From Clavelina lepadiformis (Eukaryota; Chordata; Ascidiacea; Aplousobranchia; Clavelinidae): a stretch of DNA of 64,000 nucleotides. The notes beneath the pieces are model-generated. The model ran no database searches. It was not told the origin of the DNA and saw only the letters and a list, made by a program, of their open reading frames with translations. Positions within the stretch are counted from its first letter, which is position 1; each line of letters begins with the position of its first letter. A program made the position numbers and the translations under genes. The DNA lies in assembly GCF_947623445.1 (NCBI RefSeq), contig NC_135248.1, positions 1,488,001 through 1,552,000 of the forward strand. The letters are read 5' to 3'. Below, piece after piece: positions 6,900 through 56,446 of the stretch.

Positions 6900-7870
6900 T
6901 TACCGCCACCCACTTCCTACATTGTGCCGCCGATGCCCATGATTGTTTCGCCGCGGTATTCTGACTCGGCGGCGAGCAATAAATGGAAGCGTCGAGTGGT
7001 CAAATGGCTGCGATAGTAGAACAGAGTCGCGGCGGCAACAACGCTGAATTGACGCGGCGGCAACAACGGTAAATTGACGCGCCCGCAGCAACGGTGAATT
7101 AACGCGGCGGCAAAACAACGGTGAATTGACGCGGCGGCAACAACGGTGAATTGACGCGGCGGCAACAAGGGTGAATTGACGCGGCGGCAGCAACGGTAAA
7201 TTGACGCGGCGGCAACAACAACGGTGAATTGACGCGGCGGCAACAAGGGTGAATTGACGCGGCGGCAACAACGGTGAATTGACGCGGCGGCAGCAACGGT
7301 AAATTGACGCGGCGGCAACAACGATGAAGTGACGAGGCGGCAGCAACGATGAATTGGTGGGGGGGCAAGTACAGTGAATTGGCGTGGCGGCAACAACGAT
7401 TAAGTGACGCGGCGGTAAGAACGGTGAATTGACGCGGCGGCAACAACGGTGAATTGACGCGGCGGCAGCAACGGTAAATTGACGCGGCGGCAACAACGAT
7501 GAAGTGACGAGGCGGCAGCAACGATGAATTGGTGCGGTGGCAAGTACAGTGAATTGGCGTGGCGGCAACAATGATTTAGTGACGCGGCGGTAAGAACGGT
7601 GAATTGACGCGGCGGCAAGTATAGTGAATCGAAGCCGCGGCAAGAGGTTGCACACTGCCGGCGAATGATAATTAACACTGCTTATTAAAATTTGTTTTGA
7701 TACATGAAGGTTCGGTGATAAAGTGATACCAATACACATTCAGAAGTGTTCTAACTGTAGTACCATTTACTACCATAACAACGACTTGTTGCTGAAAGAG
7801 ATGGAAGCTTATAAACTGCATAAGGTACAATATATTTAGGAACCGTAGGCTTAAACATACTGTATAAACA
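6900..7870. repeat. Dispersed element copy 2 with 25-bp minisatellite
   Basis: About 24 tandem copies of a 25-bp unit (GAATTGACGCGGCGGCAACA + ACGGT, with variants) fill about 7022-7640. The flanks match copy 1 at 6.0 kb. A larger multi-unit block is itself repeated: the run from about 7290-7425 recurs at about 7465-7600, including the rare GATGAAGTGACGAGGCGG variant. Because 25 is not a multiple of 3, all minus-strand frames stay open and cycle through the same peptide, giving false ORFs up to 279 codons. Confidence 0.85.
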
Positions 7871-13598: not shown

Positions 13599-14607
13599 TT
13601 ACATAAAAACAAAAGATTTTCTGTGGTCGGTCAATTCAACCCAAGAACTTGCTAACTCAGATGTAGTTTGGGTCGTCCCGGGTCGAATGAACCTGACACC
13701 GAGTATTGCTCTCAACTCTTTACACCAAGCATTGATGGTTGCTTCCTTTGAGTCATAAATATACTTGACGTACAAAACCAAGGCGGGAGTCGCAATAAAC
13801 AGCAATTGGACTAAGAAAATTGCAGAAAAAATTCCGTTCATAACCAACAGACCTACAAAATGAATTTTTAAACTTCTAGCAAATCGCTAGCTAGACTATG
13901 GCAAATCACATTAACTTTACGTCACACTTACGCAACGTTACCTGCAATAATAACGACATTGAGTGCAATGTCCGCCAATGCGTAGATAGTAGCATAGTTC
14001 GAGCCGTGATTTTCTTTAACGACTGAGGTCAAGTTTGGATAAATGTTAGTGGCAATCAAGACAATTCCGATCGCAAGTGCAATAGTCTACGAATTTATGG
14101 AAAATAACCTGAATAACATAAGTGTCTCAGTAAATAATTAATCTGTGCTTACCAAGCATTACCTGAAAATATTGAACAAATTTGCTTGTTGTCATGCAAA
14201 ACGTTCTTTACGACACATGGAGTTGTGAAAAAACATTGAATCTTTATTCTTGTACAAACCTCAGAGAAAGTGGGAACAAGATTAATCCGACGGTAGTTTT
14301 GAACAAGCCCAATATTATTCCTATCCAAAGTCTAATTGGGAACGTAGGACGACTGCTCGTAGTAACCAACATAGTTGCCAAACTTTGCATATTTTCAATT
14401 GTTTGTGAAGAATTTACTAATGCAATTAGTAACATTGGGTCGAGAATGAAACTATCTGAAATAACAAGCTTTGAAAAATAAACTAATTCTAAGGATAAAT
14501 GGTATCTGGTTAAATAATTTGCACTTACTTGTTGCTGCTAGAAGATAGCAAGTGATAGACACCACGGAGAACACGATAACAAAAGCTGGTAAGTTGCTAG
14601 ATTGCAT
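13599..14607 (-). pseudogene. SLC18-like gene C1, truncated pseudogene
   Basis: Remnant of a vesicular-amine-transporter-like gene. Exon 1 is present (14607-14529, start MQSSN, donor GTAAGT). Exons 2-5 and the 5' part of 6 are missing: relative to C2 in unit 2, about 2.05 kb is deleted with the junction near 14385. The rest of exon 6 (to 14260), exon 7 (14108-13942) and exon 8 (13852-13599) follow. Exon 7 keeps the family's TM11 signature NYATIYALADIAL but has an in-frame TAG at 14089-14087 where C2 has TCG. Exon 8 is longer than in C2, with a ~45-residue polar tail that C2 has lost through a stop. Spacing and splice sites otherwise match C2. Confidence 0.85.
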
Positions 14608-20313: not shown

Positions 20314-23203
20314 ATGCATTCCAATGAAAAAATATTCATGTTCAAAGTGTCTGCTGTGGTTGTCATGACTCTCGCTATGTCAATCAATTTCGGTCTTATG
20401 TCGATGTCGGGTAAGTGTTTGTTTTAATACCTGGGATTTTTCATCATTAAATGGGTGTTTATGTCCAAAACATTTGCAATCTCGTTATAATATTGTCCAT
20501 AATTGCACTGTCGAAGTTTTATACAAAACTTGGAAGACATGCAAAGGCGTCATGTCAGACTTTATCAAGCTGGCTAAAGGTTTTTGTCCAGTTCTTAAAA
20601 CAAAAATTTTCTTTAAATACACTTTACTGTAAACTATTTTTGTAGTTGATGTTGGGGTTTGATATCATGTGCTTGGATTACAATGCTAGGAATGCATCTG
20701 CTGCTTTAAGGCTCTAATTCTTTTGTTTTACAGCCCAGATTGTTCCAAAGATCTTTGGGGAAACCCCCATGACATGTGACCTGGACTTGACCAAAGCAAG
20801 CATTAACGATACCAGGTCAACAAACGTCACGTTGGGGTTGGAAACAGCAAATGTGTCATCTGCACAGCAAGTTGTCAGGCCACGAAGTTTAAAGAAAGAT
20901 GAAAAAGATTTTCCTTTCTTTGAAAACTTCAACAAAACCGCCATTTATACCGCTAAATCAATATTTCAAGCTTTTTCCAGTGTTGTCATAGGTCCAATCA
21001 TCGATAGATTCGGGCACAAGGTTGCAATGTATACAGGAACATTATATCTCTTCATAACTGCAATAGGTCGGTTACTTTTACCATTCTGCAGTAATCTATA
21101 TTTTTACATGTATGAAGTTCATTTACTCAGATCAACTCAACACTTTTTAACTCATTTCTTGCTTTTGCTTATCTCAGACAAATCTATAACAATGCTTTTG
21201 TTCAATTGGGGGGAAATTTTAATTTTGTTGGGTTAAGGGTAATATTAGTTATAGTGTTATTAGAACGAGTTAGTAACTCGTTCTTCAAAGTATAAGCTTT
21301 GGTACAACATTCTCTGAAGTCTAATCCACTTATCACTGTTTGATTTGTCTTATTATAACATCGGTTCCTTTCATGTGGATTCACTTGTACTCGTCTGCAT
21401 TGGCGACGTTTTTATGAAGAAGCGTCACCAAAACCATTTAATATTGTATCAGTTGAACTAAAACTGTTCATTTTAGGATTTGGCCTGAGCCAGAGTTACC
21501 CTGTTCTTCTTTTATCGGCCACTATACATGGCATTGGGTCTTCGTGTGTTACGGTAGGCGGGATGACTATGCTGGCGAAGACCTTCAACAGCAAAAAAGA
21601 ACGACGAAAAATATTTGGGCTGACCCTGGCATCAATAGCAGCTTCCATATCAGGTGGATACTGTGTTCAAGGGGTGTTTGTTAAACATGACAGCATTACA
21701 ATTTTATGCCTATTAATAGTTTGTTTGGTTAACACGGTTCAGACAACATCAACTTAGTAGAGTGTATTACATTACGTTGTTGCAAACTTGCAATGAAGGT
21801 GGGCTGGCAGTCTGGAGCGTACTGGAACCTGTTATCGCTACTACAAATGCAGCCACGTTGTTCGTCATTGCCGTGACGATGACTTCGCTCGGACTCTGTC
21901 AGCTTTTCCAAACTTATTTCGACACCAAAAAAGTTAAAAAGGTTACTACATTGATTGATATTTTGACTATATTAGGCATGCTTGTCTCTGTGAGATCGTT
22001 AGAGAATAAATTATAATCGTTGTAATAGGATAAGAAACCAAACGTATGGAAATTCCCGACACGCTTCCCCTTGCTAATGCTGGAAGCCCTTCTGTTACTT
22101 GGATTGGTGGTAGGAGTATTGTTCGGCGGATTTTCAAGCTGGTTAACTTGTCGTTTTATGTCATTTCCCGAATTAATTTCAGGTAAAACTAACAATATTA
22201 GCCTCTGCATTTTCATGCTTTAAATTCTCAGCTGTCTATGGTGTCTACATTACAGTCATTTGTTTGTAAAAAAAAAACTTGATAAGAAATTGTAGAGGTC
22301 AATTTCCGATTAGCCAAGGATTTTGCTACGAGAACTTTGGTTTAAAACGAGTTTAGGTTCTGATCAGTTATTTATTTACCAATTACTAGATTGCATTAAA
22401 GCTATAGTTTCAATTCCAAGCTTTAGAGACAAAATATCAAGTAGCTAAAACTCTAAGCAAAAGTTTCTCACACAAGTAATTTTATTTTTACAATGAATTG
22501 TTTCCAGGTACCGGTAAGGTTATTGTTTTTCTTCCTGCGTTTTTTGGGTTCCAGCTGACAGCAAGTTTGGTCCCTTATTCACCCCTTTCCAGTCACTATC
22601 TTTACCCGTTGACGATTGCGGCGCTGGGAATGGCCATCACTTGTTTGGGATTATTGGCAATAATACTTTCATCAAGGTTTAAATGTATTTTGATACAAAA
22701 AGGTTTAAAGATTGAAAAGTTGTCTACAAATTAAGAGTTTCTGAACGTTTTTATCACAATGAACTTGCTAGAGAGGCAAAGACATCAGTTCAAACGTACC
22801 GAGATATTGCTTCTTGTTCAGCCCATTCCACATCATTATCTGTTTGCTTGCTGTTGGCTGTGGATGTGGGTTGGTTGCCAGTTTTATTTATCCAATTTTG
22901 GCCTGGCTGGTAACAGTTAGTGGAATGTCAAACTACGGAACCGTATACGGATTGGCGGATGCTATCATCTGTGTTGGTTTTACTGCAGGTCACTGTCCGT
23001 AGCTATGACATAATGTGACTACTACTTACGCAGTAATGAGTAACTGTTGTTTGTTTGCAGGTATTTATGCCGCCGGTGCAGTCGTGCAGGCTTCGACCTA
23101 CGTCATATTGATATTGCTGTCTGCTTGTTTTTGCTTGTTGTACGCCACATTTATAGTGGTCGTGATCTTGTCGGTGGAACGAAAAGTTGATAAACAAATG
23201 TGA
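20314..23203 (+). CDS. SLC18-like transporter A1 (vesicular amine transporter family), 460 aa
   Basis: Proton-coupled MFS antiporter of the VMAT/VAChT type by similarity; the substrate is unknown. Eight exons: 20314-20410, 20734-21066, 21477-21653, 21799-21941, 22029-22182, 22508-22676, 22822-22988, 23061-23203; phases 1,1,1,0,1,2,1. Exon 1 encodes TM1. Exon 2 holds an N-glycosylation-rich luminal loop (several N-x-S/T), then TM2 with MFS motif A, GPIIDRFGHKVAMYTG (VMAT GPLTNRIGYHIPMFAG). Exon 3 has HGIGSSCVTVGGMTMLA, matching VMAT GIGSSFSSVAGLGMLA. Exon 7 has NYGTVYGLADAI, keeping the TM11 Asp that is essential in VMATs. The TM1 Asp of VMATs is Asn here (SINFGLM). The exon 2 donor (GTCGGT) is weak. 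Tail exons at about 23429-23468 and 23761-23852 may extend or replace the C-terminus after KQM. Confidence 0.85.
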
Positions 23204-23428
23204 GAAAAAATTTTGATGTAGTTTGGTAAAGTTTGACGTCAAACATTTTTTGTTACTAATGTCTCACTAGCTCTTAGTATGACATGTGCTATCGTAGGCT
23301 ACGGTCAAAAACGACAAAAGCCAAATGATGGTGGTAAATTGTCAGTAACAACTAGCAAAGCCACTAAAACTATAAAACAAGAAATAGGAATAAATTTATA
23401 GTTGCATTTAGAACCTCGTTGTTTGAAC

Positions 23429-23852
23429 ATGAGCAAAGAAACAGGAAACGATCCAAGGCTGAAACCGGGTAAGTGGCGGCCATAGCTCATTATAATAACG
23501 TTGACCACCCATTGGCACTTTTATCTTTATGAGATATGAATCACAACATAACAACAATCACGTAATATCATGACATATCATTTCATGATAATCACTTGGA
23601 AATTTTGCACAAAACTGAAATACTTCCCGAAACATAGCAAAAAAGTTGTAGTCTTTACAGTTTAAGCTGTATTTTTATTGTCAAGTTTATGGCGAATAAC
23701 AAACTTAATGCTTATAGTATGCTGGCTGCAAACAATCTAATATTAATCGCTATCTTTCAGCGTCAACTCAAAAGTCACGACAAGGGTCGTCAGCAACGTT
23801 TAAAAACTTGAGTGAGTTTTATTCAAGAAGCAACGAAAAGCTGAAGACATAA
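23429..23852 (+). CDS. Possible alternative C-terminal tail exons of A1
   Basis: After the A1 stop there are two exon-like segments: up to 23468 with a strong donor (GG|GTAAGTGG), and 23761-23852 after a strong acceptor (CTATCTTTCAG) ending in TAA. Read from ATG 23429 they give a 43-residue polar tail (MSKETGNDPRLKP then ASTQKSRQGSS...). Both splice sites and the frame are conserved in A2, where a 3-bp deletion keeps the frame. Phase 1 with a G|CG junction also fits tail exons at 51112-51146 and 58968-59074. I could not find an exon 8 donor in the right phase; a GTGAGA donor inside the exon 8 stop region would read the same exons in another frame, ending VSNV. A polyadenylation signal AATAAA is at 23953. 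Confidence 0.45.
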
Positions 23853-25087: not shown

Positions 25088-26699
25088 ATGGTTATCGTGT
25101 ATCTGCTGATGATGATCGACTACGGTCTTTTATCGATGACATGTAGGTGCCGACTTTCAAACCTAATGTTTTAATTCCTAAAGTTCTTTGCCCTTTTTCT
25201 AAAAAGTCAAAAGCATTTTTGAAACCTGTCCATCTCGACACAGTATTACTAAATGCGGTTGCAATTTTTACCTTAATAATCTATTAATTCTTTAGTTTGC
25301 AATTTTGGTTCGCTGTTTTACAGTTTAGGTTTTTCAAGCCGACTTCAGCAATACTCACTTCATCTCGAATATAGACCCACGCAACGACATTAGTTTGTCG
25401 GCAAACGCTACGTCAGACACGACAGTTACAAACCTGACAGCTACAATGCAAGGCGTTACGCCACAAAATTTAAGAGATGACGAACATGCTATTCTAGCAA
25501 CACAGAATGTCCACCCTGCTGCAATTCTCGCTGTTAAACCATCAATTCAGTCAGTGGTTAACCTATTATCTGGTTCATTGATGGACAGGTCCGGATACGG
25601 TGTTCCTATGTTTGTAGGAACTTTGGCCCTTCTTTTAACTGCAATAGGTCTGTTGTGCTTCTTTGTTGTACAATTATCTGCTCATTCTCTTAGAATTATA
25701 TTAACAGCTGCATTTTGAAACACAATGTCTGTCTTTTCTTATTTTTTGTCGATTTGTACTCACTATTGTCCACTCTGCTGTTTGAACTCATGTGTGTGAT
25801 GGAAAGTTTGTTGTCAATGACTGAAAAGTTAAAATAATCTTTTAGAAGGTGTTGATAATTATTATTTTTTCATAGCTTAAGCTTAGATAAAACAACATTT
25901 TGAAAACCTAACGACTTAACATTATTTTGGTATTATAACCTACCTTTTTGTCATACTTAGTCACTCTTGTTGGGTCGCAACGAGAAAGACATCATAAGCC
26001 ATAAGGACAAGCTACAGATGCAACTTTACCTTGTTTCGATTAATCTATGAAAATGTTCATTTTCAGGTTATGGATTCGGCCAGTCGTACACTGTTCTACT
26101 CGTATCGGCCGCTCTACATGGCATAGGATCTTCATTTGTTACGGTGGGCGGGATGACCATGATGGCCAGGATCTTTAATGACAAGGAGGAAAGAGCAAAG
26201 AAGTTCAGGACGGCTTTGTCATCGGTGGCAATAGACATGACAGGTAGATGTTGTTGAATGGATATCTTCTCTATGTAACGTTATCTTTCAATGGAAAATG
26301 CAAACAAGTTGTGGAGTATACGAGGATAAGGACATTACAATTTTACATATCAATTTGTAAACTGCATAAGCATATCGACTCTCACAATGTAAATGTCATG
26401 TCTATTTCTTTTGAAGCTGGACCGGTATTCGCGAAAGGGGTGGACAGTTTTCAAGATAAAATGATACCGTTTTTTGTATTTGCCGTTTTGATAACTTTGT
26501 TCGGGTTCTGTCAAATTTTCTGCATCGGTCTAAAGATTGAAAGAGTGAGTAGGATTTTCATTGCTGATAATTTTCTGCGTTTTTTCAAGTATGTTGATTT
26601 TGTAATATTGGTACAAAAACTGGTCATCTGCATTAGAACAAGAAGCCAATGACCCTTTCGAAGTTACCCAATGTCAGCTGCATTCTGCTCGCTGTACAA
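25088..26699 (+). pseudogene. SLC18-like gene B1, pseudogene lacking its 3' half
   Basis: Exons 1-4 are recognisable: 25088-25142, 25324-25647, 26067-26243, 26417-26544, with the beginning of exon 5 from 26637. They align to B2 exon by exon with equal lengths. Two lesions are visible. At the start of exon 2 the second codon is TAG (25326-25328) where B2 has CAG. After about 26699 the rest of exon 5 and exons 6-8 are deleted (about 1.6 kb relative to 49544-51170). Exon 2 still encodes a glycosylated luminal loop and LLSGSLMDRSGYGVPMFVG (MFS motif A) and exon 3 HGIGSSFVTVGGMTMMA. An alternative acceptor TTTAG at 25328 would bypass the stop but puts exon 2 out of frame. Confidence 0.88.
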
Positions 26700-31879: not shown

Positions 31880-34800
31880 TGATGTAAACGTTACAGTTTA
31901 CACGATGACTTGTACATCATATATACAAAAGGCTATGTAACATAGACACAACATTAGCATATACACGAAAAGGTTTAGAAAAAATCTATTCACGACATGT
32001 TTCATCCGCATCACAAATTCTCGTTACCTTTATTTATCTGAACATTGTGGACAAAGCACCTTTAAGGGTGCTGGGAAAACGGGAGTAATTATGACGTAAT
32101 TCAATTCCGTGTTCTACAGTTTTGTCGTGAAGCTGAGTTCAGTTAAGTCGGATCACGGCTGTAAGCAGGCACGCTTTGAAGCCATTCTTTTCATCAACTT
32201 CTGTTTTGGTATACCCGGTGTATCCATACCCTGTACAAGAAAAGAAGTTTAATGATGAAACGGATACGTCGAATTTTTTGTTGATGGCTTCTTCGTCAAT
32301 TGCCAATTTGTATTGGACTCCAGGTTGCGTTTTCGAGCCACAGTTTATACCAACAATTTGTTGGCATAGTTGCAAATTACATAATTACATTAAGGTTCGC
32401 CGGTTTGACGTCAAACTTTACCAAACTACATCAAAAAATATATTTTTCAGCTTCCTTTAAACTTCGTGTCGTGACGACACATTTGCAGTTGCCTACTCCA
32501 TCGTGGCGTTTGTTGTCCTGTTATCGTTAATGCTTGCTTTGGTCAAGGTGACTCACATATCATGGGGGTTTTTCCAAAGCTCTTTGGAACGACTAGGGCT
32601 ATAAAACAAAACACTTCAAGCTTTAAAGCAGTAGAAGCATTCCCAGCATCTGAACATGGTGGACAAAGCACCTTTAAGGGCGCTGGGAACGGGACAGTAA
32701 TTTAATTCCGTGTTCTAAAGTTTTGTCATGAAGCTGAGTTCAGTTAAGTCGTATCATGGCTGTAAGTAAGTAACCACGATTTGAAGCCATTCTTTTCATC
32801 AACTTTTGTTTTGGTATACCCGGTTCATCCATACCCTATTACCCTGTACAAGAAAGGAAGTCTAATGATGAAACGGATACTTCGAATTTTTTCGTTGTTG
32901 GCTTCTTTATCTATTGTCAATTGGACTCCAGGTTCCGTTTTGGAGTCACAATTTATACCACCAATTTGTTGGCAGGCTTGTCAACAATCGGCATAGTTGT
33001 AAATTACATAATTACCTTAAGGTTAGCCGCTTCGTCTGTAAGCACACTGAGTTGTAAGCAACTCCAGTTGCTTTGAGAGCCTATAGTGGTTAATCAATCT
33101 CGGTCAATGGTTGTCAAGGGAAACGTCGTTGGTGAAGGTGAAGTTATTAGTTGTTCTGTGCCAGGACAAATTCAGTGAAAAGACTGTTCCCTGACCTCCA
33201 GTCATTGGTTACATTGAAATTTATGCTACTGTCTATGTTTACCTGGTTGCAAGATCTGCGTTGGTTGTAGCGTCAGCTAGGCCAATAATAAGAAATACGT
33301 TGTAACATTGGGTTGCAGGCAGTTTAATTTGTTGTTGGTCGGCATTTTCATCATTATCATTTAGTCAGGATTTGTGATACGAAAAACCTATAATGCCAAC
33401 AGTTATAGTGCCACAAATATTGGCTCATAAACGGTCTATGATTTTGGAACCAACCCAACGTTGTTCCCATTCAACGTCATATTCCACCCTGCGTTGCAAT
33501 AAATGTTTTTCGCCTCTTCTATACTTTATGACGTAATTGTTTGCCAAGTTGAAGTCGAATTTATAGTCGGTGTCTGTAACGTGACGTTTGTCGACACATT
33601 ATACTCTGTCGCTATATTACCATTGTTGCTTGCGTTGTACAAATATGGATTTGACTGTAAAAGATTTTTCCACAGAACGGTCGGAATAACTGAAACTGAA
33701 AATAAATGGAATCGATGAAAAATCAATAAAATCGACAACTAATAATGTAATCAATAAAATGAATGAGCGTGGCTAACGTATGATTGGTCTCGTAAATTGA
33801 AACCAATTCAATTGCAGTATGTTTTTTCAATTTTAAGTGAGGTTTTGTGGATTTGAAACCATTCTTTTCATCAACTTCTGTTTTGGTATACCCGGTTCAT
33901 CCATACCCTGTACAAGAAAGGAAGTTTTATGATGAAACTGATACGTTGAATTTTCGTTGATGGCTTCTTTGTCAATTGTCAATTAGTATTGGACTCCAGG
34001 TTGCGATTTCGAGTCACAGTTTATACCAACAATTTGTTGGCATAGTTGCAAATTACATAATTACCTTAAGGTTCGCCGGTTTGTCTGTAAGCAGACTGTA
34101 TTGTAAGTAACCCCAGTTTCTTTCAGAGCCTATAGTTGTTAGTCAAACTCGGTTGTTGGTTGGCTTGTCGGTTGTCGTTACCCATCCGTAGGCAAATTGT
34201 AAACACGTCTCTCCTAAATTCCTGCTTCTTTAAAAGCACTTCCAGGGAAACATCGTTGGTGAAGGTGAAGTTATCAGCTGTGTTGTGCAGGGGCAGATTC
34301 AGTGAAAATTAATTTGTTGTTTGTCGGCATTTTCGTTATTACACGGTTTGTTATTCGTCATAAACTTTGACAATGTCTCATGAAGATAACAGTGCCAATG
34401 GGTCGTCAACATTATTATGAGCTATGGCCACCACATAGGCTACCCGGTTTCAGCCTGGGATCGTTTCCTGTTCATTTGCTCATGGTCAAACAACGTGGTT
34501 GTATGTGCAACTGTAAATTTATTCCTATTTCTTGTCTTATAGTTTTAGTGGCCGTGCTAGTTGTTACCAGCAATTTATCACCATCTTTTGGCTTTTGTCG
34601 TTCTTGACCCGTAGCCTACGTTAGCACATGTCATACTAAGAGCTAATGAGGCACTAGTAACAAAAAATGTTTGACGTCAAACTTTACCAAACTAGGCTAC
34701 ATCAAAAAATATATTTTTCAGCTTCCTTTAAACTTCGTGTCGTGACGACACATTTGCAGTTGCCTACTCCATCGTGGCGTTTGTTGTCCTGTTATCGTTA

Positions 34801-37267: not shown

Positions 37268-40169
37268 TCAGCCATATATAAACTTGACGTACAAAAGATA
37301 GGCGCAAGGCATGATTAACATCAGTACTGGGTAAATGCAAGTAACTGGTAAAATTCCGCTGGTAACCAACACACCTAAGAAATGCATTTTTTAAAAGTTT
37401 TGATAAGCAAATGGTGTAACTTCACGAAACACTTACGCAACGTTACCTGTAATAACACCGAAATTGAGTATAGGGTCCGCCAACGCGTAGACGGCAGCAT
37501 AGTTCGAGTCCTGATTTTTTTCAGCGAGTGACGTCAAGTTTGGATAAATGTTAGTGGCAACCGAGACAAACCCGATCATAAGTGTAATGGTCGACGAGTT
37601 TATGGAAAATAACCTGAATAACATAAGTGTCTCAGTATATAATCTGTGCTTAGCATGCATTACCTGAAAACAGGAAAGAACTTATTGGTATGCAAAACGT
37701 TCTTTACAACACATTGAGTTGTGAAAAAACACTGAATCTTTATTCCTAAACAAACCTCAACGAAAGTGGGAACGAAGTTAATCCGACGGTAGCTGTGAAC
37801 AAGCCCAATATTGTTCCCATCCAACGTCTGAGTGGAAACCTCGGACGACTGCTCATAATTGACAATCTAATTGCCAAGGCAATGCCACAAGAAAAGATAG
37901 CCAAAACTGGAACAAAAATACATTATAAAGCGGGGATGTATTCCTAAGAGTATCAAGTGAAAAAAGCTGCATGAATGTAGTCATACCTGTTTGCCACTGT
38001 AAGTCTACGCCAGATATTGACCATACTGAACATGACTCAGTTAGCGTTCCCAGCACTAAGCCTATTACAACCAGAATTACCCCAGCTCTTGAAAAGTCGT
38101 TGTCATTGAGCAAAGGCAATAAGGCCACAGGCTGCTTTGCCTAAAGCAGAAAAGTTAAGGAACAAAAGTCAAAGTGTTCAAACCACGAACGTTATAAATC
38201 ATGACAACAGACTAACTTTTTCATTCCTTTCAATCTTCGGAATATTAAAAAGCAGCAGGAATAAACCATGTAAAGCAATCAAGGCAGTAACAATGCAAAG
38301 TTTTACAATTTTATCTTGAAAAGTTCCCACAATATCCTCACTCCATGGTACGACTTTTAATCAAAATAGGGTATTGTTACATAATAGCTACAGCCTATAA
38401 TACAAAGCAACTGTTATTATTGAAGCAATGTAAAAAGCGATGGTAAACTGCAATGTCATAATTGTCGTATACGTATACTTGATAATTGATTTGATTTCCT
38501 TCAAGTAACAAAATTGAATTCAACGTCAATGCTTTTTCGCAATTCTGAACCTACTTGCCACTCGAAGTAATATTGATGACAAAGACAATCTAATCACGTG
38601 TCTTCTTTGATTCTTGTCGGTGACAGTACTGACCAGCATGGTCATCCCGCCCACCACGTTACATGAAGCACCGATGCCTTGAATGGCGACCGATACAAAT
38701 AGGGCAGGGTACGACTTGGCCAGTGCAAAACCTGAAATGTAAACAAGTTTAAATTTTTTGTAAATGTAATAAAACGTTTCTATGACGTTCATGAGTATCC
38801 TGGTTGGCAACATAATTTCAATCAAATAGGTCTAAACGTATTAGTCACAAATTACGAAAGAAGGTGACCAAAACTAACATAATTTAGCTTTGAATTCACC
38901 AGACTGAACGTGGTTGTTATAAAAATGAAAACTTCTTCATATGACCTCAGATACTTGTACAATATAAACAGTAGTAGAGCAAAACCTACCTATGGCAGAT
39001 AACGACATAACAACGGTCCCAGCAAACATGGGAACCTTGTATCCGATCCTGTGAATCAATGGACCAACAAACATATCAGTAACGACTTGGACGGCCATTT
39101 TGCAGATAAAAATGGAGGAAATTTTCACACCCTGCGTAGCGATGAACGCTTTCCTCGCGTCTTCCATGCTTTGTAACATATCACCTTCGATCGTTGCAAT
39201 ACCGTTATTGCTTGCATTGTATAAATATGGATTTGACTCCAAATGACTTTTCCACAGGACAGACGGAATTATTGAAACTGAAGACAAAATGTAATCAATA
39301 AAAAATCAATAAAATCGACAACTTAAAGTAATCGAACAGACGAATGTGGGTGGTGAACTTATAATTGGGTTCATATATGATTGTAGTATGAAATAGATTT
39401 AATAGAGTTTCGGAAATTGAAACCAATTAGTTTCCAGTATGTTGTTTGGAGTTTAAAAGGGTTTATGGAATGAAGCAAAATGGAATGTAAAGATTCAAAC
39501 TAAACCAAAAGAAATCCTTTTTAGTTAACTTGCGTTTGATCCGGATTAATTAACTGTGGTAGTATTACATGATTTTATTATTAAAATCCGAAACAACAAG
39601 ATTTCGCGGCAGACATTGTTGGAAATATGAATTGGGCGACAACCATCTACAATTCTACATCTTGCCTCATGACAATGGTTATGCGCTGCCTGATCAATTG
39701 AAAAATAGGCGGTAATGGCAAATATTAGCATCGCAAAGGGGGTGCTGAATGTACAAAGCTCAGGGCGCACTGATGTGCTATGCAGATTACGTCATAGGAC
39801 AATAACACTAGGCTAACCCCACAATTCAATTGATTCTTAGAATTGTCGGGATACCGCAGCGTCACGAGATTTGTTTCACGAACCTTTCAGTGACTGCTCA
39901 AAACCTTTTTGTATGGCACCGACGCACTTTGCATATTTTCAATTGTTTGCGAAGAATTTGCAAAACAATAATTGTTTACTAATTATTAGTAGCATTGGGT
40001 CGAGAATAAAACTGTTTCTGATAAAGCTTTGAAAATAATAACTAATTCTAAGGATTAAAAGACTCAGGATAAGGATAGTTTTGCACTTACTTGTTGTTAT
40101 TGAAAGATTGTAAGTGAGAGACAAAACGCAGAGCAAGATAACCACACCTAGTGTGTTGCTAGATTGCAT
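37268..40169 (-). CDS. SLC18-like transporter C2, 419 aa
   Basis: Eight exons on the minus strand: 40169-40091, 39277-38990, 38731-38555, 38353-38217, 38140-37987, 37906-37756, 37613-37447, 37374-37268; phases 1,1,1,0,1,2,1 as in A and B. Key motifs are VGPLIHRIGYKVPMFAG (VMAT GPLTNRIGYHIPMFAG), QGIGASCNVVGGMTMLV (TM4) and NYAAVYALADPI (TM11, Asp kept). The luminal loop has YNAS. The first ATG in frame is MQSSN. Exon 4 uses a donor 12 bases beyond that of B because the old GTGAGT site has changed; the new one is GTTAGT and the frame holds. The last exon ends at TGA 37268 where C1 reads on for about 45 residues, so the cytosolic tail is shortened. It could be functional or newly decaying. Confidence 0.8.
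38818..38989. other. Intron 2 of C2
   Basis: Intron between exons 2 and 3 (38732-38989), canonical GTAGGT donor and TTTCAG acceptor on the minus strand. Nothing else seen. Confidence 0.5.
39278..40090. other. Long intron 1 of C2
   Basis: At about 810 bp it is the longest C2 intron. The part near 39925-40090 is also present next to C1 exon 1; the remainder is lost from unit 1 by the deletion. No gene is recognised inside. Confidence 0.5.
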
Positions 40170-42666: not shown

Positions 42667-45548
42667 ATGCATTCCAATCAAAAACTATTCATGTTCAAAG
42701 TGGTTGCTGTGGTTATCGTCACTCTCACTATGGCAACCAATTTCGGGCTTCTATCGATGACGTGTAAGTGTTTGTTTTAATACCTGGGATTTTTCAGCAT
42801 TTAATGAGTGTTTATGTCCAAAACGTTTGTAATCTCGGTACATTGTCAGTAATTGCACTGTTTTTTTTATAAACAACTTGGAAGACATGCAAAGGCGTCA
42901 TGTCAAACTTTATCAAGCTAGCTAAAAGTTTTTGGGAAGTTCTTAAAACAAAAAATGTCTTTAAATACGCTTCACTGTAAACCATTTTTGTAGTTGATGT
43001 TTGGGTTTCATATCATGTGCTTGAATTACAATGCTGGGAATGCTTTAAAGCTTCAAGTTTTTTGTTTTACAGCCCTGGTCGTTCCAAAGAGCCTTGGGAA
43101 ATCCTCCATGATATGTGAATCAGACTTGACGGAAACAAGCATTAACGGTACCAGGACAACAAACGCCACGTTTGGGTTGGCAACTGTAAATGTGTCGTCT
43201 GCACAGCAAGTTGTCACGCCACGAAGTTTAAAGGAAGCTGAAAAAGATTTTCCTTTATTTGAAAACCTCAACAAAGCCACCATTTATGCTACTAGATCGA
43301 TATTTCAAGCTTATTCCAGCGTTGCCATAGGTCCAATCATCGACAGATTCGGGCACAAGGTTGCCATGTATGCTGGAACCGGATTTCTCTTCATAACTGC
43401 AATAGGTCGGTTACTTTTACCATTCTGCAGTAGTCTATATTTTTACATATATGAAGTTCAATCACTCAGATCAACTCAACACTTTTTCAAACTCATTTTT
43501 TACTTTTGCATAACTCAGACAAATCTACAACAACGCTTTTGTTTAATTGGGGGCAAAATTTAATTTGTTCGGTTCAGGGTAAAGATTAGTTTAGTCATAT
43601 TAGAATGAGTCAGTGACTCGTTCTTCAAAGTATAAGCTTTGGTACAACATTCTCTGACGTCTAATCCAGTTAACACTGTTAGATTTGTCTTGGTCTAACA
43701 TCGGTTCTTTTCATGTGGATTCATTTGTACTGGTCTGCATTGGCGACGTTTTTATGAAGAAGCAGAAGAAAAAAATCATTTAATATTGTTTCAATTGAAC
43801 TAAAAACGTTCATTTTAGGATTTGGCCTGGGCCAGAGTTACCCTGCTCTTCTTGTATCGGCCACTATACATGGCATTGGGTCTTCATGTGTTACGGTAGG
43901 CGGGATGACTATGCTGGCGAAGACCTTCAACAACAATGAAGAACGAGGAAAAATATTTGGGCTGACTATCGGGCATATCGACTATCTGACTATTTGGGCA
44001 TCGGTAGCAGCTTCCATATCAGGTGGATACTGTTCAAGGGGTGTTTGTTAAACATGACAGCATTACAATTATGTGCCTATTACTAGTTTGTTTGGTTAAC
44101 ACCGTTCAGACAACATCAACTTAGTAGAGTGTATTACATTGTTTTGAAGGCGTGCTGGCAGTCTGGAGCGTACTGGACCCTGGTAACTCTACTACAAATG
44201 CAGCCACGTTTTTCGTCATTACCGTGGCTATAACTTTGCTCGGACTCTGTCAGCTTTTCCACAATTATTTGGACACCAAAAAAGTTAAAAAGGTTAATGC
44301 ATTGATTGATATTTTGACTGTATTAGGCATGCTTGTCTCTGTGAGATCGTTAGAGAATAAATTATAATCTGTATTAGGATAAGAAACCAATCGTCGTGTG
44401 GAAATTCCCGAAACACTTCTACATGCTAGTGCTGGAAGCCCTTCTGATACTTGGATTGGTGGTAGGAGTATTGTTCGGCGGATTTTCAAGCTGGTTAACT
44501 TGTCGTTTCATGTCATTTCCCGAATTAATTTCAGGTAAAACTGCCATTATTAGCCTATATGCATTTTCATGTATAAAAAATCTCAGCTGTCTATGTTGTC
44601 TACATTACAATCGTTTTTTGTAAATAAACTTGATAAGAAATTGTGGAGGCCAATTTCCGATTAGCCAAGGATTTTGCTCCGAAAACTTTGGTTTAAAATG
44701 AGTTTAGGTTCTGATCAGTTATTTAGTTACCAATTACTAAATTGCATTAAAGCTATAGTTTCAATTACAAGCTTTAGAGACAAAATATCAAGTAGCTAAA
44801 ATTCTAAGCCAAAGTTTTTCACACAAGTGATTTTATTTTTACAATGAACTGTTTCTAGGTACCAGTAAGGTTTTTGTTTTTCTTCCTGCGTTTTTTGGGT
44901 TCCAGCTGGCAGCAAGTTTGGTCCCTTCTTCGCCCCTCTCCTGCCACTTTCTTTTCCCGTTGATGATTGCGGGAATGGCCATCATTTCTTTGGGACTGTT
45001 GGCAGTAACACTTTCATCAAGGTTTAAATGTATTTTCATTCAAAAAGGTTTAAAGATTGAAATTTTGTCTACAAATTGATAGTTTCTGAACATTTTTATC
45101 ACAAGGAACTTGCCAGAAAGGCAAAGATATCAGTTCAGACGTACCGAGATATTTTTTCTTGTTCAGCCTATTCCACATCATGATCTTTTTGTTTGCTGTT
45201 GGCTGTGGTTGTGGGTTGGTTGCCAGTTGTGTTTATCCACGCTTGGCCAGGCTGGTAGCAGTTAGTGGAATGTCAAACTACGGCACCGTATACGGATCGG
45301 CGGATGCTATCATCTGTGTTGGTTTTACTGCAGGTCACGAGCCGTAGTTATGACATAATGTGACTACTATTTACGCAGTAATGAGTAACTGTTGTTTGGT
45401 TGCAGGTATTTATGCCGCCGGTGCAGTCGTGCAGGCTTCGAGCTACGTCATATTGATGTTGCTGTCTGCTTGTGTTTGCTTGTTGTACGCCACATTTATA
45501 GTGGTCGTGATCTTCAAGGTGGAACGAATAGTTGATAAACAAATGTGA
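42667..45548 (+). CDS. SLC18-like transporter A2, 468 aa
   Basis: Eight exons: 42667-42763, 43073-43405, 43819-44022, 44150-44292, 44378-44534, 44859-45021, 45167-45333, 45406-45548. All junctions keep frame. Exon 2 has an N-glycan-rich luminal loop and GPIIDRFGHKVAMYAG; exon 3 HGIGSSCVTVGGMTMLA; exon 7 NYGTVYGSADAI. Compared with A1, exon 3 has a 27-bp in-frame insertion (GLTIGHIDYLTIWAS for GLTLAS), exon 5 one extra codon and exon 6 two fewer. The TM1 acidic residue of VMATs is Asn here too (ATNFGLL). Possible tail exons lie at 45773-45812 and 46159-46247. It lies head-to-head with C2. It looks intact. Confidence 0.85.
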
Positions 45549-45772
45549 GAAAAAATTTTGATGTAGTTTGGTATAGTTTGACGTCAAACATTTTTTGTTA
45601 GTAGTGCCTCATTAGCTCTTAGTATGACATGTGCTAACGTAGGCTACGGTCGAGGACGACAAATCCAAATAATGGTGATAAATTGCCAGTAACAACTAGC
45701 ATTGCCACTAAAATCATAAGACAAGAAATAGAAATAAATTTATAGTTGCATTTAGAACCGCGTTGTTTGAAC

Positions 45773-46247
45773 ATGAGCAAAGAAACAGGAAACGATCCCA
45801 GGCTGAAAACGGGTAAGTGGTGGCCATAGCTCATTATAATAACGTTGACGACCCATTGGCGCTGTTATCTTTATGAGATATGAATCACAACATAACATAA
45901 TGTCATGACATATCTTTACAGTTTAAGTTGAGTGTTCCATATGAATCACAACATAACAATCACGTAATGTCATGACATATCATTTCATGATAATCACATG
46001 GAAATTTTGCACAAAACTGAAATACTTCCCGAAACATAGCAAAAAAGTTGTAGTCTTTACAGTTTAAGTTGTATTTTTATTGTCCAAGGTTATAAGAATA
46101 ACAAACCTAATGTTTATATTATGCTGCAAACAGTCTAATATTGCTCGCTATCTTTCAGCGTCAACTCCAAAGTCACGACATCTGTCAGCAACGTTTAAAA
46201 ACTTGAGTAAGTTTTATTCAAGAAGCAACGAGAAGCTGAAGACATAA
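45773..46247 (+). CDS. Possible alternative C-terminal tail exons of A2
   Basis: Counterpart of the A1 tail exons: ATG 45773 to donor at 45813 (GTAAGTGG), then 46159-46247 ending TAA. A 3-bp deletion relative to A1 leaves the frame intact. The link to exon 8 is unresolved. Confidence 0.4.
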
Positions 46248-47956: not shown

Positions 47957-49936
47957 ATGTTTATCGTGTATCTGCTGATGATAATCGACTACGGTCTTTT
48001 ATCGATGACATGTAGGTGCCGATTTTCAAACCTAATATTTTAATTCCTAAAGTTCTTTGTCTTCTTTCTAAAAAGTTGAAAGCATTTCTGAAACCTTTCT
48101 ATCTGGACACAGTTTTACTAAATGCAGTTGCAATTTTTACCTTAATGAACTATTAATTCTTTGATTCCTAATTTTCATTTCCTGTTTTACAGTTCAGTTT
48201 TTTCAAGCCGACTTCAGCAATACTCACTTCATCTCGAATACAGACCAACGCAACGACATTAGTTTGTCGGCAAACGCTACGTCAGAGACGACAGCTACAA
48301 ACCTGACAGCACCAATACAAGGCGTTACGCCACAAAATTTCAGAGATGATGAACATGCTATTCTAGCAACACAGAATGTCCACCCTGCTGCAATTTTCGC
48401 TGTTAAACCAGCGGTTCAGTCGGTGGTTAACCTATTATCTGGTTCATTGATTGACAGCTTCGGATACGGTGTTCCTATGTTTGTAGGAACTTTGGCCCTT
48501 CTTTTAACTGCAATAGGTTGGTTGTACTTCTTTGTTGTACAATTATCTGCTCATTCTCTTAGATTAACAGCTGTATTTTGAAACACAATGTCTGTCTTTT
48601 CTTATTTTTTGTCGATTTGTACAAACTATTGTCCACTCTGCTGTTTGAACTCATCTGTGTGATGGAAAGTTTGTTATTGACGGCTGGAAAGTTAAATTAA
48701 TCTTTTAGAAGGTGTTGATATTTCTAAGGTATTTCGTCATAACTTAAGTTTAGATAAAACAGCGTTTTGAAAACCTAACGGCTTCACATTATTTTGATAT
48801 TATAACCTACCTCTATTTTATTGGTTCGCAACGAGAAAGACATCATAAGGACAAGCTACAGAAGCAACTTTACCTTGTTTCGATTAAACTATGAAAATGT
48901 TCATTTTCAGGTTATGGATTCGGCCAGTCTTATTTTTTTCTACTTGTATCGGCCGCTCTACATGGCCTAGGATCTTCATTTGTTACGGTGGGCGGGATGA
49001 CCATGATGGCCAGGATCTTTAATGACAAGGAGGAAAGAGCAAAAACGTTCAGAACGGCTTTGTCATCCATGGCAATAGGCATGACAGGTAGATGTTGTTG
49101 AATGGATATCTTCTCTGTGTAACGTTATCTTTCAATGGAAAATGCAAACAAGTTGTGGAGTATACGAGGATAAGGTCGTTACAATTTTACATATCAATTT
49201 GTAAACTGCATAAGCATATCGACTGTCACAATGTAAATGTCATGTCTATTTCTCTTGAAGCTGGACCGGTATTCGCGAAAGGGGTGGACAGCTTTCAAGA
49301 TAAAATGATACCGTTTTTTGTATTTGCCGTTTTGATAACTGTGATCGGGTTCTGTCAAATTTTCTGCATCGGTCTAAAGATTGAAAGAGTGAGTAGGATT
49401 TTCATTGCTGATAGTTTTCTGCGTTTTTTCAAGTATGTTGATTTTCTAAGATTGGTACAAAAACTGGTCATCTGCATTAGAACAAGAAGCCAATGACCCT
49501 TTCGAAGTTACCCAATGTCAGCTGCATTCTGCTCGCTGTACAAAGTTTGATGATAACTGGATTCGTGTTAGGTGTGTTAATTGGCGGATTTCCAGACTTG
49601 TTGATGCGTCGTTTAAAACCCTCCAAATGGGAACTGGGTATGTAGTCTTAAAAGCATATTTATGCTTAAACTTTTCAGCAGTTTATTACAGTTACTCGCA
49701 TGTTTTGTGTAAATATTAAATCTATTTTCTAGTAGCTAGCAAACTTTTGCATTTAGTCAATTCTGCTACGCTTAAGATGGTGAGCTCCTTTTGTTAATAT
49801 GGGACTCGACATGTATAAAATTTGAATGATTACGTAATATGTTCTAAACTACAGTTAAGTGAACTTTAGGTTTGTTGTTAATCAAAGCAAAATAGGTACA
49901 ATAATCCTCTACCAAATGAAATGGTAATACTTACTG

Positions 49937-49979
<43 letters not shown>

Positions 49980-50811
49980 CGTGTGCTTATATACTTATAA
50001 CAGGTTTGCTGCGATTAACTAAGTAGCTTAGCAAGACACTTTATCATAAACTTAGCGTTCAAACTGGAGCACCTAAATGCCAAGCTAATGAGAGATCCAA
50101 TTTAAATCTGGTAAATAATTAATCAGCGTATTTTTATATGTAACTGTACGTAGGTGATGTTTTTTTATACGGGATTGTTGGATTCGAGTTGTCAGCCATT
50201 CTGATCCGCAAACTTCCTTTCAATAACTGGCCTTGGATAGATACAGTGATGGGAATGGTGATTCTCTTTATCGGATTAATTATGTTGACACTTTCGCCAA
50301 GGTTCAAAGTTTTTATTGAGATAAAATTGTTTGAAAAAATTACAGATTTTGTCTAGAAACTTTTGAATATTTTTTGTCGTCAGTAATTTACACGAAACAA
50401 CAAATAATTAATCAATTCCAACTTATTTCCTTTTGTCAGCTTTTTGTTCATAACTGTCCCCACAATTGGTTATGGGATTAACTTTATTACCGGTAGTATT
50501 TATCCCGACTTGCCTTCGTTGCTTGAAGCTAATCATAAATCCCATTACGGGACCGTCTTTGCACTTGCGGATTGTGGCTTCAGCATTAGTTTCGCTGCAG
50601 GTAATATTTAGTAAATGTGACGTTAAGCTATACGATTGGCTAGGCATCAATTTAAAAGTTATGTTTATTTTAAGGTCTCTTGTGTTATTGCGCAATCCTG
50701 ACCACTTCAAACTTCCACTATGTCATGTGGATGATGGGGTTTATGTGCATGGTGCACGCCACGTGTAACCTTGTGTTCTGGAATTTGAGGAAACCGCAAT
50801 CGGCAGTATAA
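47957..50811 (+). CDS. SLC18-like transporter B2, 428 aa
   Basis: Intact counterpart of B1. Exons: 47957-48011, 48193-48516, 48911-49087, 49261-49388, 49481-49637, 50154-50301, 50440-50600, 50675-50811 (TAA); phases 1,1,1,0,1,2,1. TM1 is short and keeps an acidic residue (LLMIIDYGLLSM), at the place of the TM1 Asp that binds amine in VMATs. Exon 2 has a Thr/Asn-rich luminal loop and LLSGSLIDSFGYGVPMFVG; exon 3 HGLGSSFVTVGGMTMMA. Exon 5 ends KWELG (VMAT KWQLG), and exon 7 has HYGTVFALADCG with the TM11 Asp. Of the three genes it keeps most of the VMAT charge pattern, so an organic-cation or amine substrate is a reasonable inference. A further tail exon is possible at 51112-51146. Confidence 0.87.
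49938..49985. repeat. (TA)n(TG)n microsatellite in B2 intron 5
   Basis: A run of TA dinucleotides changes to TG/CG dinucleotides. Unit 1 has lost this region. Confidence 0.9.
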
Positions 50812-54236: not shown

Positions 54237-56446
54237 ATTTGTTGTTTGTCGGCATTTTCGATATTACACGGTTTGTTATTCGTCATAAACTTTGACAATA
54301 TCTTATGAAGATAACAGTGCCAATGGGTCGTCAACTTTATTATGAGCTATGGCCACCACATACCCGGTTTCATCCTGGGATCGTTTCCTGTTCATTTGCT
54401 CATGGTCAAACAACGTGGTTGTAAATGCAACTATAAATTTATTCCTATTTCTTATCTTATGGGTTTACTGGCTGTGCTAGTTGTTACTGGCAATTTATCA
54501 CGATTATTTGGCTTTGTCGTTCTCGACCGTAGCCTACGTTAGCACATGTCATACTAAGAGCTAATGAGGCACTAGTAACAAAAAATGTTTGCCGTCAAAG
54601 TTTTCCAAACTAGGCTACATCAAAAAATATCTTTTTCAGCTTCCTTTAAACTTCGTGTCGTGACGACACATTTGCAGTTGCCTACTCCATCGTGGCGTTT
54701 GTTGTCCTGTTATCGTTAATGCTTGCTTTGGTCAAGGTGACTCACATGTCATGGGTGTTTTTCCAAAGCTCTTTGGAACGATTAGGGCTATAAAACAAAA
54801 CACTTCAAGCTTTAAAGCAGTAGAAGCATTCCCAGCATCTGAACATGGTGGACAAAGCACCTTTAAGGGCGCTGGGAACGGGACAGTAATTTAATTCCGT
54901 GTTCTACAGTTTTGTCATGAAGCTGAGTTCAGTTAAGTCGTATCATGGCTGTAAGTAAGTAACCACGATTTGAAGCAACTCTTGTCATCAACTTTTGTTT
55001 TGGTATACCCGGTTCATCCATACCCTGTACAAGAAAGGAAGTCTAATGATGAAACGGATACTTCGAATTTTCCAAGTTGCGTTTTGGAGTCACAATTTAT
55101 ACCAACAATTTGTTGGCAGGCTTATCAACAATCGGTATAGTTGTAAATTACATAATTACCTTAAGTTTAGCCGCTTCGTCTGTAAGCACACTGAGTTGTA
55201 AGCAACCCCAGTTGCTTTCAGAGTCTATAGTGGTTAATCAATCTCGGTCAATGGTTGTCAAGGGAAACGTCGTTGGTGAAGGTGAAGTTATTAGCTGTTC
55301 TGTGCAGGGGCAGATTCAGTGAAAAGACTGTTCCCTGACCTCCAGTCGCTGGTTACCTTGAACTTCGGCTGCTGACGAGGTTTGCCTGGTTTCAAGACCT
55401 ACATTGGTTGTAGCGTCAGCTAGGCCAGTAATAAGAAATTTACACACGTTGTAACATTGGGTTGCAGGCAGTTTCATTTGTTGTTGGTCGGTATTTTCAG
55501 CTGTGTCATTTAATAAGGATTTGTGATACGAAAAACCTACAATGCCAACAGTTATAGTGCCACAAATATTGGCTCATAAACGGTCTATGATTTTGGAACC
55601 AACCCAACGTTGTTCCCATTCAACGTCATATTCCACCCTGCGTTGCAATAAATGTTTTTCGCCTCTTCTATACTTTATGACGTAATTGTTTGCCAAGTTG
55701 AAGTCGAATTTATAGTCGGTGTCTGTAACGTGACGTTTGTCGACACATTACACTCTGTCGCAATATTACCATTGTTGCTTGCATTGCACAAATATGGATT
55801 TGACAGTAAAAGATTTTTCCACAGAACGGTCGGAATAACTAAAACTGAAAATAAATGGAATCGATGAAAAATCAATAAAATCGACAACTAATAATGTAAT
55901 CAATAAAATGAATGAGTGTGGGTAACGTATAATTGGTTTCACTGATCTTTGTATAAAGTTACATTTGCAGCATGTTTGTTCAATTTTAAGTGAGGTTTTG
56001 TGGATTTGAAGCCATTCTTTTCATCAACTTCTGTTTTGGTATACCCGGTACAAGAAAGGAAGTTTTATGATGAAACGGATACGTCGAATTTTTTGTTGAT
56101 GGCTTCTTCGTCAATTGCCAATTTGTATTGGACTCCAGGTTGCGTTTTCGAGTCAGTTTATACCAACAATTTGTTGGCATAGTTGCAAATTACATAATTA
56201 CTTTAAGGTTCGCCGGTTTGTCTGTAAACAGACTGTATTGTAAACAACCCCAGTTTCTTTCAGAGCCTATAGTTGTTAGTCCAACTCGGTTATTGGTTGG
56301 CTTGTCGGTTGTCGTTACCCATCTGTAGGCAAATTGTAAACACGTCTCTCCTAAATTCCTGCTTCTTTAAAAGCACTTCCAGGGAAACATCGTTGGTGAA
56401 GGTGAAGTTATCAGCTGTGTTGTGCAGGGGCAGATTCAGTGAAAAT
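54237..56446 (-). repeat. E repeat, tandem copy 1 (2.2 kb)
   Basis: Almost identical to 56447-58680, offset about 2.21-2.23 kb. On the minus strand it holds, from right to left: a tail-exon-like piece, a C-type exon 2 start (55887-55675), another tail-exon-like piece, an A-type exon 2 start (about 54825-54650) and an A-type 3' flank and tail exon (about 54600-54300). There is no complete gene. Confidence 0.85.

What the first reader, a model, noticed from the sequence alone, without database searches (positions are those of the whole stretch)
22822..23203. A1 versus A2: nearly all coding differences change amino acids
Comparing exons 7 and 8 of A1 (22822-22988, 23061-23203) with A2 (45167-45333, 45406-45548) by eye, I count about 16 amino-acid replacements and only about 2 silent changes. 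Exon 2, with the luminal loop, is likewise replacement-rich (roughly a third of residues differ), while the shared upstream non-coding DNA appears less diverged than exon 2. The splice sites and the reading frame are nevertheless kept. This pattern suggests diversifying selection on substrate specificity or luminal loops; pseudogene drift would also add silent and frame-breaking changes.
Basis: partly seen in the sequence, partly recalled or inferred. Interest (0 to 1): 0.8.

Follow-up and report, generated by a model that had tools for sequence, protein, structure and literature searches.

The report
Fast-changing sea-squirt vesicular-transporter gene pair
In the light-bulb sea squirt, two neighbouring copies of a gene related to the transporter that loads brain amines into vesicles have gathered protein-changing mutations about as fast as changes in their introns yet keep intact reading frames, which likely marks a young, loosely constrained gene family that may be diversifying at some sites rather than a clear case of positive selection.

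Summary
The counting is right: exons 7+8 of A1 and A2 differ by 16 replacement codons and 2 silent codons. The statistic is weaker than it looks. Neutral change here would already be 70-72% replacement, and 18 replacement to 3 silent nucleotide changes is not significant (p=0.13). Over 458 codons dN/dS is 1.22 (NG86) or 1.49 (ML, p=0.06). Exon divergence (10.0%) about equals intron divergence (9.8%). Pseudogene drift is nevertheless rejected: no frameshift or stop in either copy, 3 of 3 exon indels in frame against 2 of 12 intron indels, and the A2 protein recurs letter for letter on another Clavelina contig. The genes are SLC18/VMAT-like transporters in a tandem array with at least three subfamilies on chromosome 9 of Clavelina lepadiformis; the A subfamily has lost VMAT2's D33, R189, E312 and D399. 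Site models give modest support for a dN/dS>1 class in exons 3-8 (p about 0.03 once rate variation is allowed), little in exons 1-2. Verdict: a real, functional, fast-evolving young family; diversifying selection suggested, not shown.

The parts
20314..20410 (+). A1 exon 1 (start codon, TM1 by alignment)
   Evidence: ORF, GT donor, phase 1; exon present in 7 of 8 A copies
20734..21066 (+). A1 exon 2 (luminal loop and next helices, by alignment to VMAT2)
   Evidence: VMAT2 match begins at residue 81
21477..21653 (+). A1 exon 3
21799..21941 (+). A1 exon 4 (acceptor revised from 21758 to 21799)
   Evidence: phase-1 join gives SGGLAVWS, as in listed proteins P0001, P0003-P0006
22029..22182 (+). 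A1 exon 5
22508..22676 (+). A1 exon 6
22822..22988 (+).
23061..23203 (+).
23412..23468 (+). A1 predicted alternative exon 9
   Evidence: in frame with the exon 8 donor; 19 residues identical to P0001
23761..23803 (+). A1 predicted alternative exon 10 to stop (492-residue form)
42667..42763 (+). A2 exon 1
43073..43405 (+). A2 exon 2
43819..44022 (+). A2 exon 3, with a 27-base in-frame insertion
   Evidence: also in P0007
44150..44292 (+). A2 exon 4
   Evidence: sequence; position
44378..44534 (+). A2 exon 5 (one codon more than A1)
44859..45021 (+). A2 exon 6 (two codons fewer)
45167..45333 (+). A2 exon 7
45406..45548 (+). A2 exon 8
45756..45812 (+). A2 predicted alternative exon 9
46159..46198 (+). 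A2 predicted alternative exon 10 (three bases shorter than A1's, still in frame)

Best explanation
A1 and A2 are two intact tandem copies of an SLC18/VMAT-like transporter gene whose replacement changes have built up at about the rate of their introns while frame and splice sites were kept; the likely cause is recent duplication with loose amino-acid constraint, probably plus diversification at a minority of sites. Shown: homology, gene structure by sequence, dN about equal to dS and to intron divergence, frame constraint. Inferred: the protein transports something across a vesicle or plasma membrane; a constrained core is balanced by relaxed or mildly diversifying sites, mainly in exons 3-8; exchange between copies (A6 is a mosaic) reshuffles variants. 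The substrate is unlikely to be a classical monoamine handled as in VMAT2, because the residues at D33, R189, E312 and D399 are all replaced.
For: SLC18 homology: VMAT2 E 2e-30, Pfam MFS_1. Five of eight A copies have open frames through all eight exons (A1, A2, A3, A7, A8). A1-A2: dN 0.118, dS 0.085, intron K 0.109; exons 10.0%, introns 9.8%. Frame: 0 of 3 exon indels shift frame, 10 of 12 intron indels would; 5.2 stops and 9.4 frameshifts expected under neutrality, 0 seen. A2 protein identical to P0007. Site models, exons 3-8: M2a over M1a p=3.4e-4 at constant rate, p=0.028 with codon-rate variation; 0 of 37 neutral rate-varying and 0 of 32 M1a simulations reached the observed 15.98. Constraint somewhere: dN/K has a CI wholly below 1 in 3 of 30 comparisons (A2-A3 exons 1-2 and all, A2-A7 exons 1-2) and wholly above 1 in 1 (A1-A3 exons 3-8). 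Mosaic A6: trees.
Against: Whole-gene site test with rate variation is not significant (p=0.16) and its null fits dN/dS=1 everywhere. The constant-rate test is inflated: 11 of 37 neutral rate-varying runs passed 5.99, maximum 15.68. Only 3 codons reach posterior 0.9: A1 residues 42 (exon 2), 451 and 455 (exon 8 tail, where A7 and A8 have indels), so no clear set of sites in exons 3-7. Three of eight A copies are damaged (A4, A5, A6), and the listed A7 protein P0009 is only 300 residues. B copies also have dN/dS 0.58-1.16, so A is not unique. No expression data were seen; no listed protein is identical to A1 (nearest P0001, 28 of 460 residues different).
Confidence: 0.62

Rival explanations
1. 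Strong diversifying selection on substrate specificity or luminal loops drives most A1-A2 differences.
For: Exons 7+8 16:2 codons; whole-gene silent deficit 30 of 139 against 40.9, one-sided p=0.024; ML dN/dS 1.68 in exons 3-8 (p=0.069), and among 10 pairs one significant in exons 3-8 (A7-A8 1.86, p=0.035) and one in exons 7-8 (A1-A3 7.8, p=0.007), uncorrected; dN/K 1.60 (1.07-2.48) for A1-A3 exons 3-8; site class with dN/dS 2.0-3.8 in exons 3-8; for exons 1-2, M8 over M8a p=0.049 (five copies) and 0.040 (eight copies).
Against: A1-A2 dN/dS not significantly above 1 in any region; exon and intron divergence about equal; exons 1-2 M1a/M2a p=0.25 and no gain at all once rate variation is allowed; support in exons 3-8 drops with rate variation.
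Confidence: 0.27
2. Pseudogene drift: A1 and A2 are dead copies and the ratio is simply neutral.
For: dN about dS about intron divergence; sister copies A4, A5, A6 are damaged.
Against: No stops where 5.2 are expected, no frameshifts where 9.4 are expected; splice sites kept; A2 protein identical on another contig; the alternative C-terminal exons are also in frame.
Confidence: 0.04
3. Copy exchange (gene conversion) lowers silent divergence locally and makes the ratio look high in exons 7-8 without selection.
For: Local divergence varies: introns 3 and 4 5.5% and 4.7%, introns 1 and 2 11.0% and 12.2%; A6 groups with A2 in exons 1-2 and with A1/A4 in exons 3-5 and 7-8.
Against: Conversion removes replacement and silent differences alike, so alone it does not raise dN/dS; exon 8 has 7 replacements and 0 silent changes beside 8.3% in intron 7.
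Confidence: 0.07

Closest known systems
SLC18A2 / VMAT2 (vesicular monoamine transporter 2)
   Same: Sequence match over residues 81-445 of the A1 query (E 2e-30); D426 equivalent kept in 8 of 8 A copies, K138 in 7 of 8 (Arg in A2).
   Different: R189 to Ala, E312 to Phe, D399 to Ala in 8 of 8 A copies; D33 to Asn in the 7 copies that have exon 1 (sequences, aligned). In VMAT2 these residues line the cavity (PMC10959523, passages seen).
Clavelina VMAT-like proteins P0013/P0014 (P0014 on a contig of chromosome-7 size)
   Same: Same family, closer to VMAT2 (P0013 E 6e-73).
   Different: Keep the D33 equivalent, with R189, E312, D399 as Pro, Asn, Thr; 35% identical to P0007/A2.
Tandem, rapidly evolving detoxification or chemosensory gene arrays (recalled, no call)
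   Same: Birth and death of copies, mosaics, dN/dS near 1, damaged copies among intact ones.
   Different: Here the family is SLC18, usually few-copy (recalled).

Membership tests
SLC18 (VMAT/VAChT) transporters | Significant sequence homology to solved members | tested here: met
   16 of 16 PDB sequences at E<=1e-3 are VMAT1, VMAT2 or VAChT, for A1 and for A2=P0007
SLC18 (VMAT/VAChT) transporters | 12-helix MFS fold | tested here: inconclusive
   Pfam MFS_1 57 bits over residues 103-379; AlphaFold2 model unusable, mean pLDDT 39
SLC18 (VMAT/VAChT) transporters | VMAT2 cavity residues D33, R189, E312, D399 | tested here: not met
   Asn, Ala, Phe, Ala in the A copies
SLC18 (VMAT/VAChT) transporters | VMAT2 residues K138 and D426 | tested here: met
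   Asp in 8 of 8; Lys in 7 of 8, Arg in A2
SLC18 (VMAT/VAChT) transporters | Proton-driven uptake of amines into vesicles | not testable with these tools
   needs a transport assay
Positively selected gene pair | dN/dS significantly above 1 | tested here: inconclusive
   A1-A2 ML: all 1.49, p=0.062; exons 3-8 1.68, p=0.069; exons 7-8 2.37, p=0.14; exons 1-2 1.20, p=0.56
Pseudogene | Stops and frameshifts at the neutral rate | tested here: not met
   0 of each between A1 and A2 against 5.2 and 9.4 expected

The most novel reading that the evidence does not exclude
A lineage-specific array of SLC18-fold transporters in Clavelina has dropped the monoamine/proton site and is diversifying its transport path for other compounds, for example the animal's own alkaloids, with neighbouring units sharing exons by splicing so that damaged copies (A4, A5) still contribute to proteins.
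Probability: 0.15. Interest if true: 0.7.

Novelty: new member of a known kind. Interest (0 to 1): 0.35.

Why it matters
A 16:2 replacement-to-silent count is not, on its own, evidence of positive selection; intron divergence and indel frame give a cleaner reading: function kept, protein evolving near the neutral rate. The family is a compact natural set (eight A copies found, five with open frames) of VMAT-related proteins without the canonical acidic residues, useful for asking what SLC18 proteins do once the amine site is gone and how young transporter arrays diversify.

Tried and rejected
Structure: AlphaFold2 on 12 aligned proteins gave mean pLDDT 39; no fold search was run, so where variable sites sit relative to the cavity is open. 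A whole-genome protein search for all SLC18-like genes did not complete (below), so genome-wide copy number is unknown; the DNA search found 9 places, one of them only an exon-8 piece, and its counts are lower bounds. First pairwise ML runs stuck at dN/dS=1.00 for some pairs; redone with other starts, and only those dN/dS values are used. The first exon 4 start (21758) was moved to 21799. In one search the rows for D33 and N34 used wrong positions and are not used; D33 was read. Constant-rate site tests (p 3e-5 to 4e-4 for exons 3-8 and joint) were downgraded after allowing codon-rate variation and simulating nulls (37 of 60 and 32 of 60 planned runs finished; the simulated rates came from the whole-gene fit, not the exons 3-8 fit). 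Dropped or missing rows: A4 exon 6 and A5 exon 1 read as missing in the eight-copy analysis; the set of five intact copies was chosen after seeing which are broken; C comparisons cover exons 2, 3 and 7 only, C1 exon 7 only, and one pair (C1-C4) was too short. Literature: searches for SLC18 expansion in tunicates gave 3, 2 and 0 papers, seen as listings, none on point by title; a search for three-letter residue names gave 0. That is not proof of absence: most subscription journals are not held.

Full report
What and where. The window is bases 1,488,001-1,552,000 of contig C9 (15,725,681 bases) of a 209.06-Mb genome in 95 contigs. Homologous proteins on a contig of exactly that length are named Clavelina lepadiformis; the genome note gives chromosome 9 as 15.73 Mb and 210.1 Mb in 102 scaffolds (PMC10884593, passages seen). 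The held copy differs slightly from that assembly (95 against 102 sequences; C3 25,734,561 here, 25,736,969 in the protein listing). A1 (20314-23203) and A2 (42667-45548) are eight-exon genes by sequence, intron phases 1,1,1,0,1,2,1, all GT-AG, encoding 460 and 468 residues. Exon 8 also holds a donor overlapping the stop codon that would lead to two further in-frame exons, giving 492 and 499 residues, an ending seen in P0001-P0004 and P0006.

Family. A1 matches Pfam MFS_1 and, among solved structures, only VMAT1, VMAT2 and VAChT (16 of 16 sequences, best E 2e-30). I found eight A copies: A1-A7 on C9 within about 175 kb, A8 on C3. Five have open frames (A1, A2, A3, A7, A8); A4 has a 110-base deletion in exon 6, A5 lacks exon 1, A6 has a stop in exon 2. 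Six B and six C copies or pieces of the same family lie among and beside them. Against VMAT2, R189, E312 and D399 are Ala, Phe and Ala in 8 of 8 A copies, D426 is kept in 8 of 8 and K138 in 7 of 8; D33 is Asn in the 7 copies with exon 1. In VMAT2 these residues line the cavity and are thought to take part in proton coupling (PMC10959523, passages seen). A VMAT2-like monoamine/proton antiport is therefore unlikely for A; that is inference.

Observation.

Is it selection? For A1-A2, 28-30% of neutral coding changes would be silent. Exons 7+8: 3 silent of 21 against 5.8 expected, p=0.128; all exons: 30 of 139 against 40.9, one-sided binomial p=0.024, but the ML ratio test gives p=0.062 and the NG86 bootstrap P(dN<=dS)=0.155. 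Intron yardstick: exons 137 of 1374 (10.0%), introns 144 of 1468 (9.8%); dN/K 1.08 (0.84-1.39) overall, 1.26 (0.87-1.84) for exons 1-2, 1.12 (0.78-1.66) for exons 3-8. Over 30 comparisons (10 pairs, 3 regions) the CI of dN/K lies above 1 once (A1-A3 exons 3-8) and below 1 three times (A2-A3 exons 1-2 and all; A2-A7 exons 1-2). Among the 10 pairs of intact copies ML dN/dS over the gene is 0.82-1.49, none with p<0.05; one of 10 reaches p<0.05 in exons 3-8 (A7-A8) and one of 10 in exons 7-8 (A1-A3), uncorrected.

Is it decay? No. With 139 coding changes 5.2 stops would be expected and none is seen (P=0.005); from 10 frame-shifting intron indels 9.4 are expected in the coding sequence and none is seen (conditional binomial p=0.002). 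All three A1-A2 exon indels are multiples of three, against 2 of 12 in introns (p=0.022). The A2 protein, with its 9-residue insertion, is identical to P0007, listed on a contig of 1,942,587 bases; whether that is another individual I do not know. Frame selection with mean dN/dS near 1 implies a mixture of constrained sites and sites free or favoured to change.

Site models. With constant rate and one tree for each of two blocks, five intact copies, M2a beats M1a in exons 3-8 (p=3.5e-5; 26% of codons at 3.6) but not in exons 1-2 (p=0.25, though M8 over M8a gives p=0.049 there); eight copies give the same picture (p=4.6e-5 and 0.21; M8/M8a 0.040 in exons 1-2). With a local tree per exon the exons 3-8 result is p=3.4e-4; allowing two codon rates it falls to p=0.028, to no signal in exons 1-2, and to p=0.16 for the whole gene. 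Simulations: 0 of 37 (neutral, rate-varying; maximum 15.68) and 0 of 32 (M1a) reached the observed 15.98, but 11 of 37 passed the nominal 5.99, so the constant-rate test is inflated. Only residues 42, 451 and 455 of A1 reach posterior 0.9. I read this as suggestive.

Comparators. B pairs: dN/dS 0.58-1.16, none of 15 different from 1. C pairs: 4 of 14 significantly below 1 (0.44-0.56, all four involving C5), none significantly above; other C pairs scatter from 0.62 to 1.82. So dN/dS near 1 is not special to A1-A2; young pairs in all three subfamilies scatter round 1, which fits relaxed constraint after duplication. Exchange between copies is visible: A6 groups with A2 in exons 1-2 and with A1/A4 in exons 3-5 and 7-8, exon 6 being unresolved (trees).

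Verdict. Ordinary in kind, unusual in degree: a young transporter array evolving near the neutral rate in protein while keeping frame. Diversifying selection is possible, not established.

Noticed in passing
32403-34668, 34373-34707, 54298-54625, 56510-56844 (and on to C9 about 1,674,000): A tandem repeat unit of about 2.0-2.3 kb carries, in reverse orientation, A-gene pieces (A1 20683-20912, intron 1 end to exon 2, joined to A1 23211-23537); 28 such places in the 222 kb read, 4 in the window, one cut short; the exon-2 part carries stops. Possibly a satellite born from an A-gene fragment.
   Followed up: partly
C9 about 1,563,000-1,620,000 (loci L011-L016): Listed C. lepadiformis isoforms seem to combine units: P0003 (X5) A4-type 5' and A3/A5-type 3' parts, P0004 (X1) A3-type then A4-type, P0006 (X4) an exon 1 identical to A2/A3/A6 with A5-type remainder. 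Real cross-unit splicing or a prediction artefact.
   Followed up: partly
25088-26699 and 47957-50727: B-type SLC18-like copies downstream of A1 and A2; B1 was found only for exons 1-4 and part of 5, B2 for exons 1-7 plus a short last exon.
   Followed up: partly
13943-14104 and 37451-39236 (minus strand): C-type SLC18-like copies in reverse orientation; C1 was found only as an exon-7-like piece with a stop, C2 for exons 2, 3 and 7.
   Followed up: partly
7028-7643: Direct tandem repeats in the self-comparison, not characterised.
   Followed up: no
43819-44022: A2 exon 3 has a 27-base in-frame insertion absent from the seven other A copies but present in P0007.
   Followed up: partly
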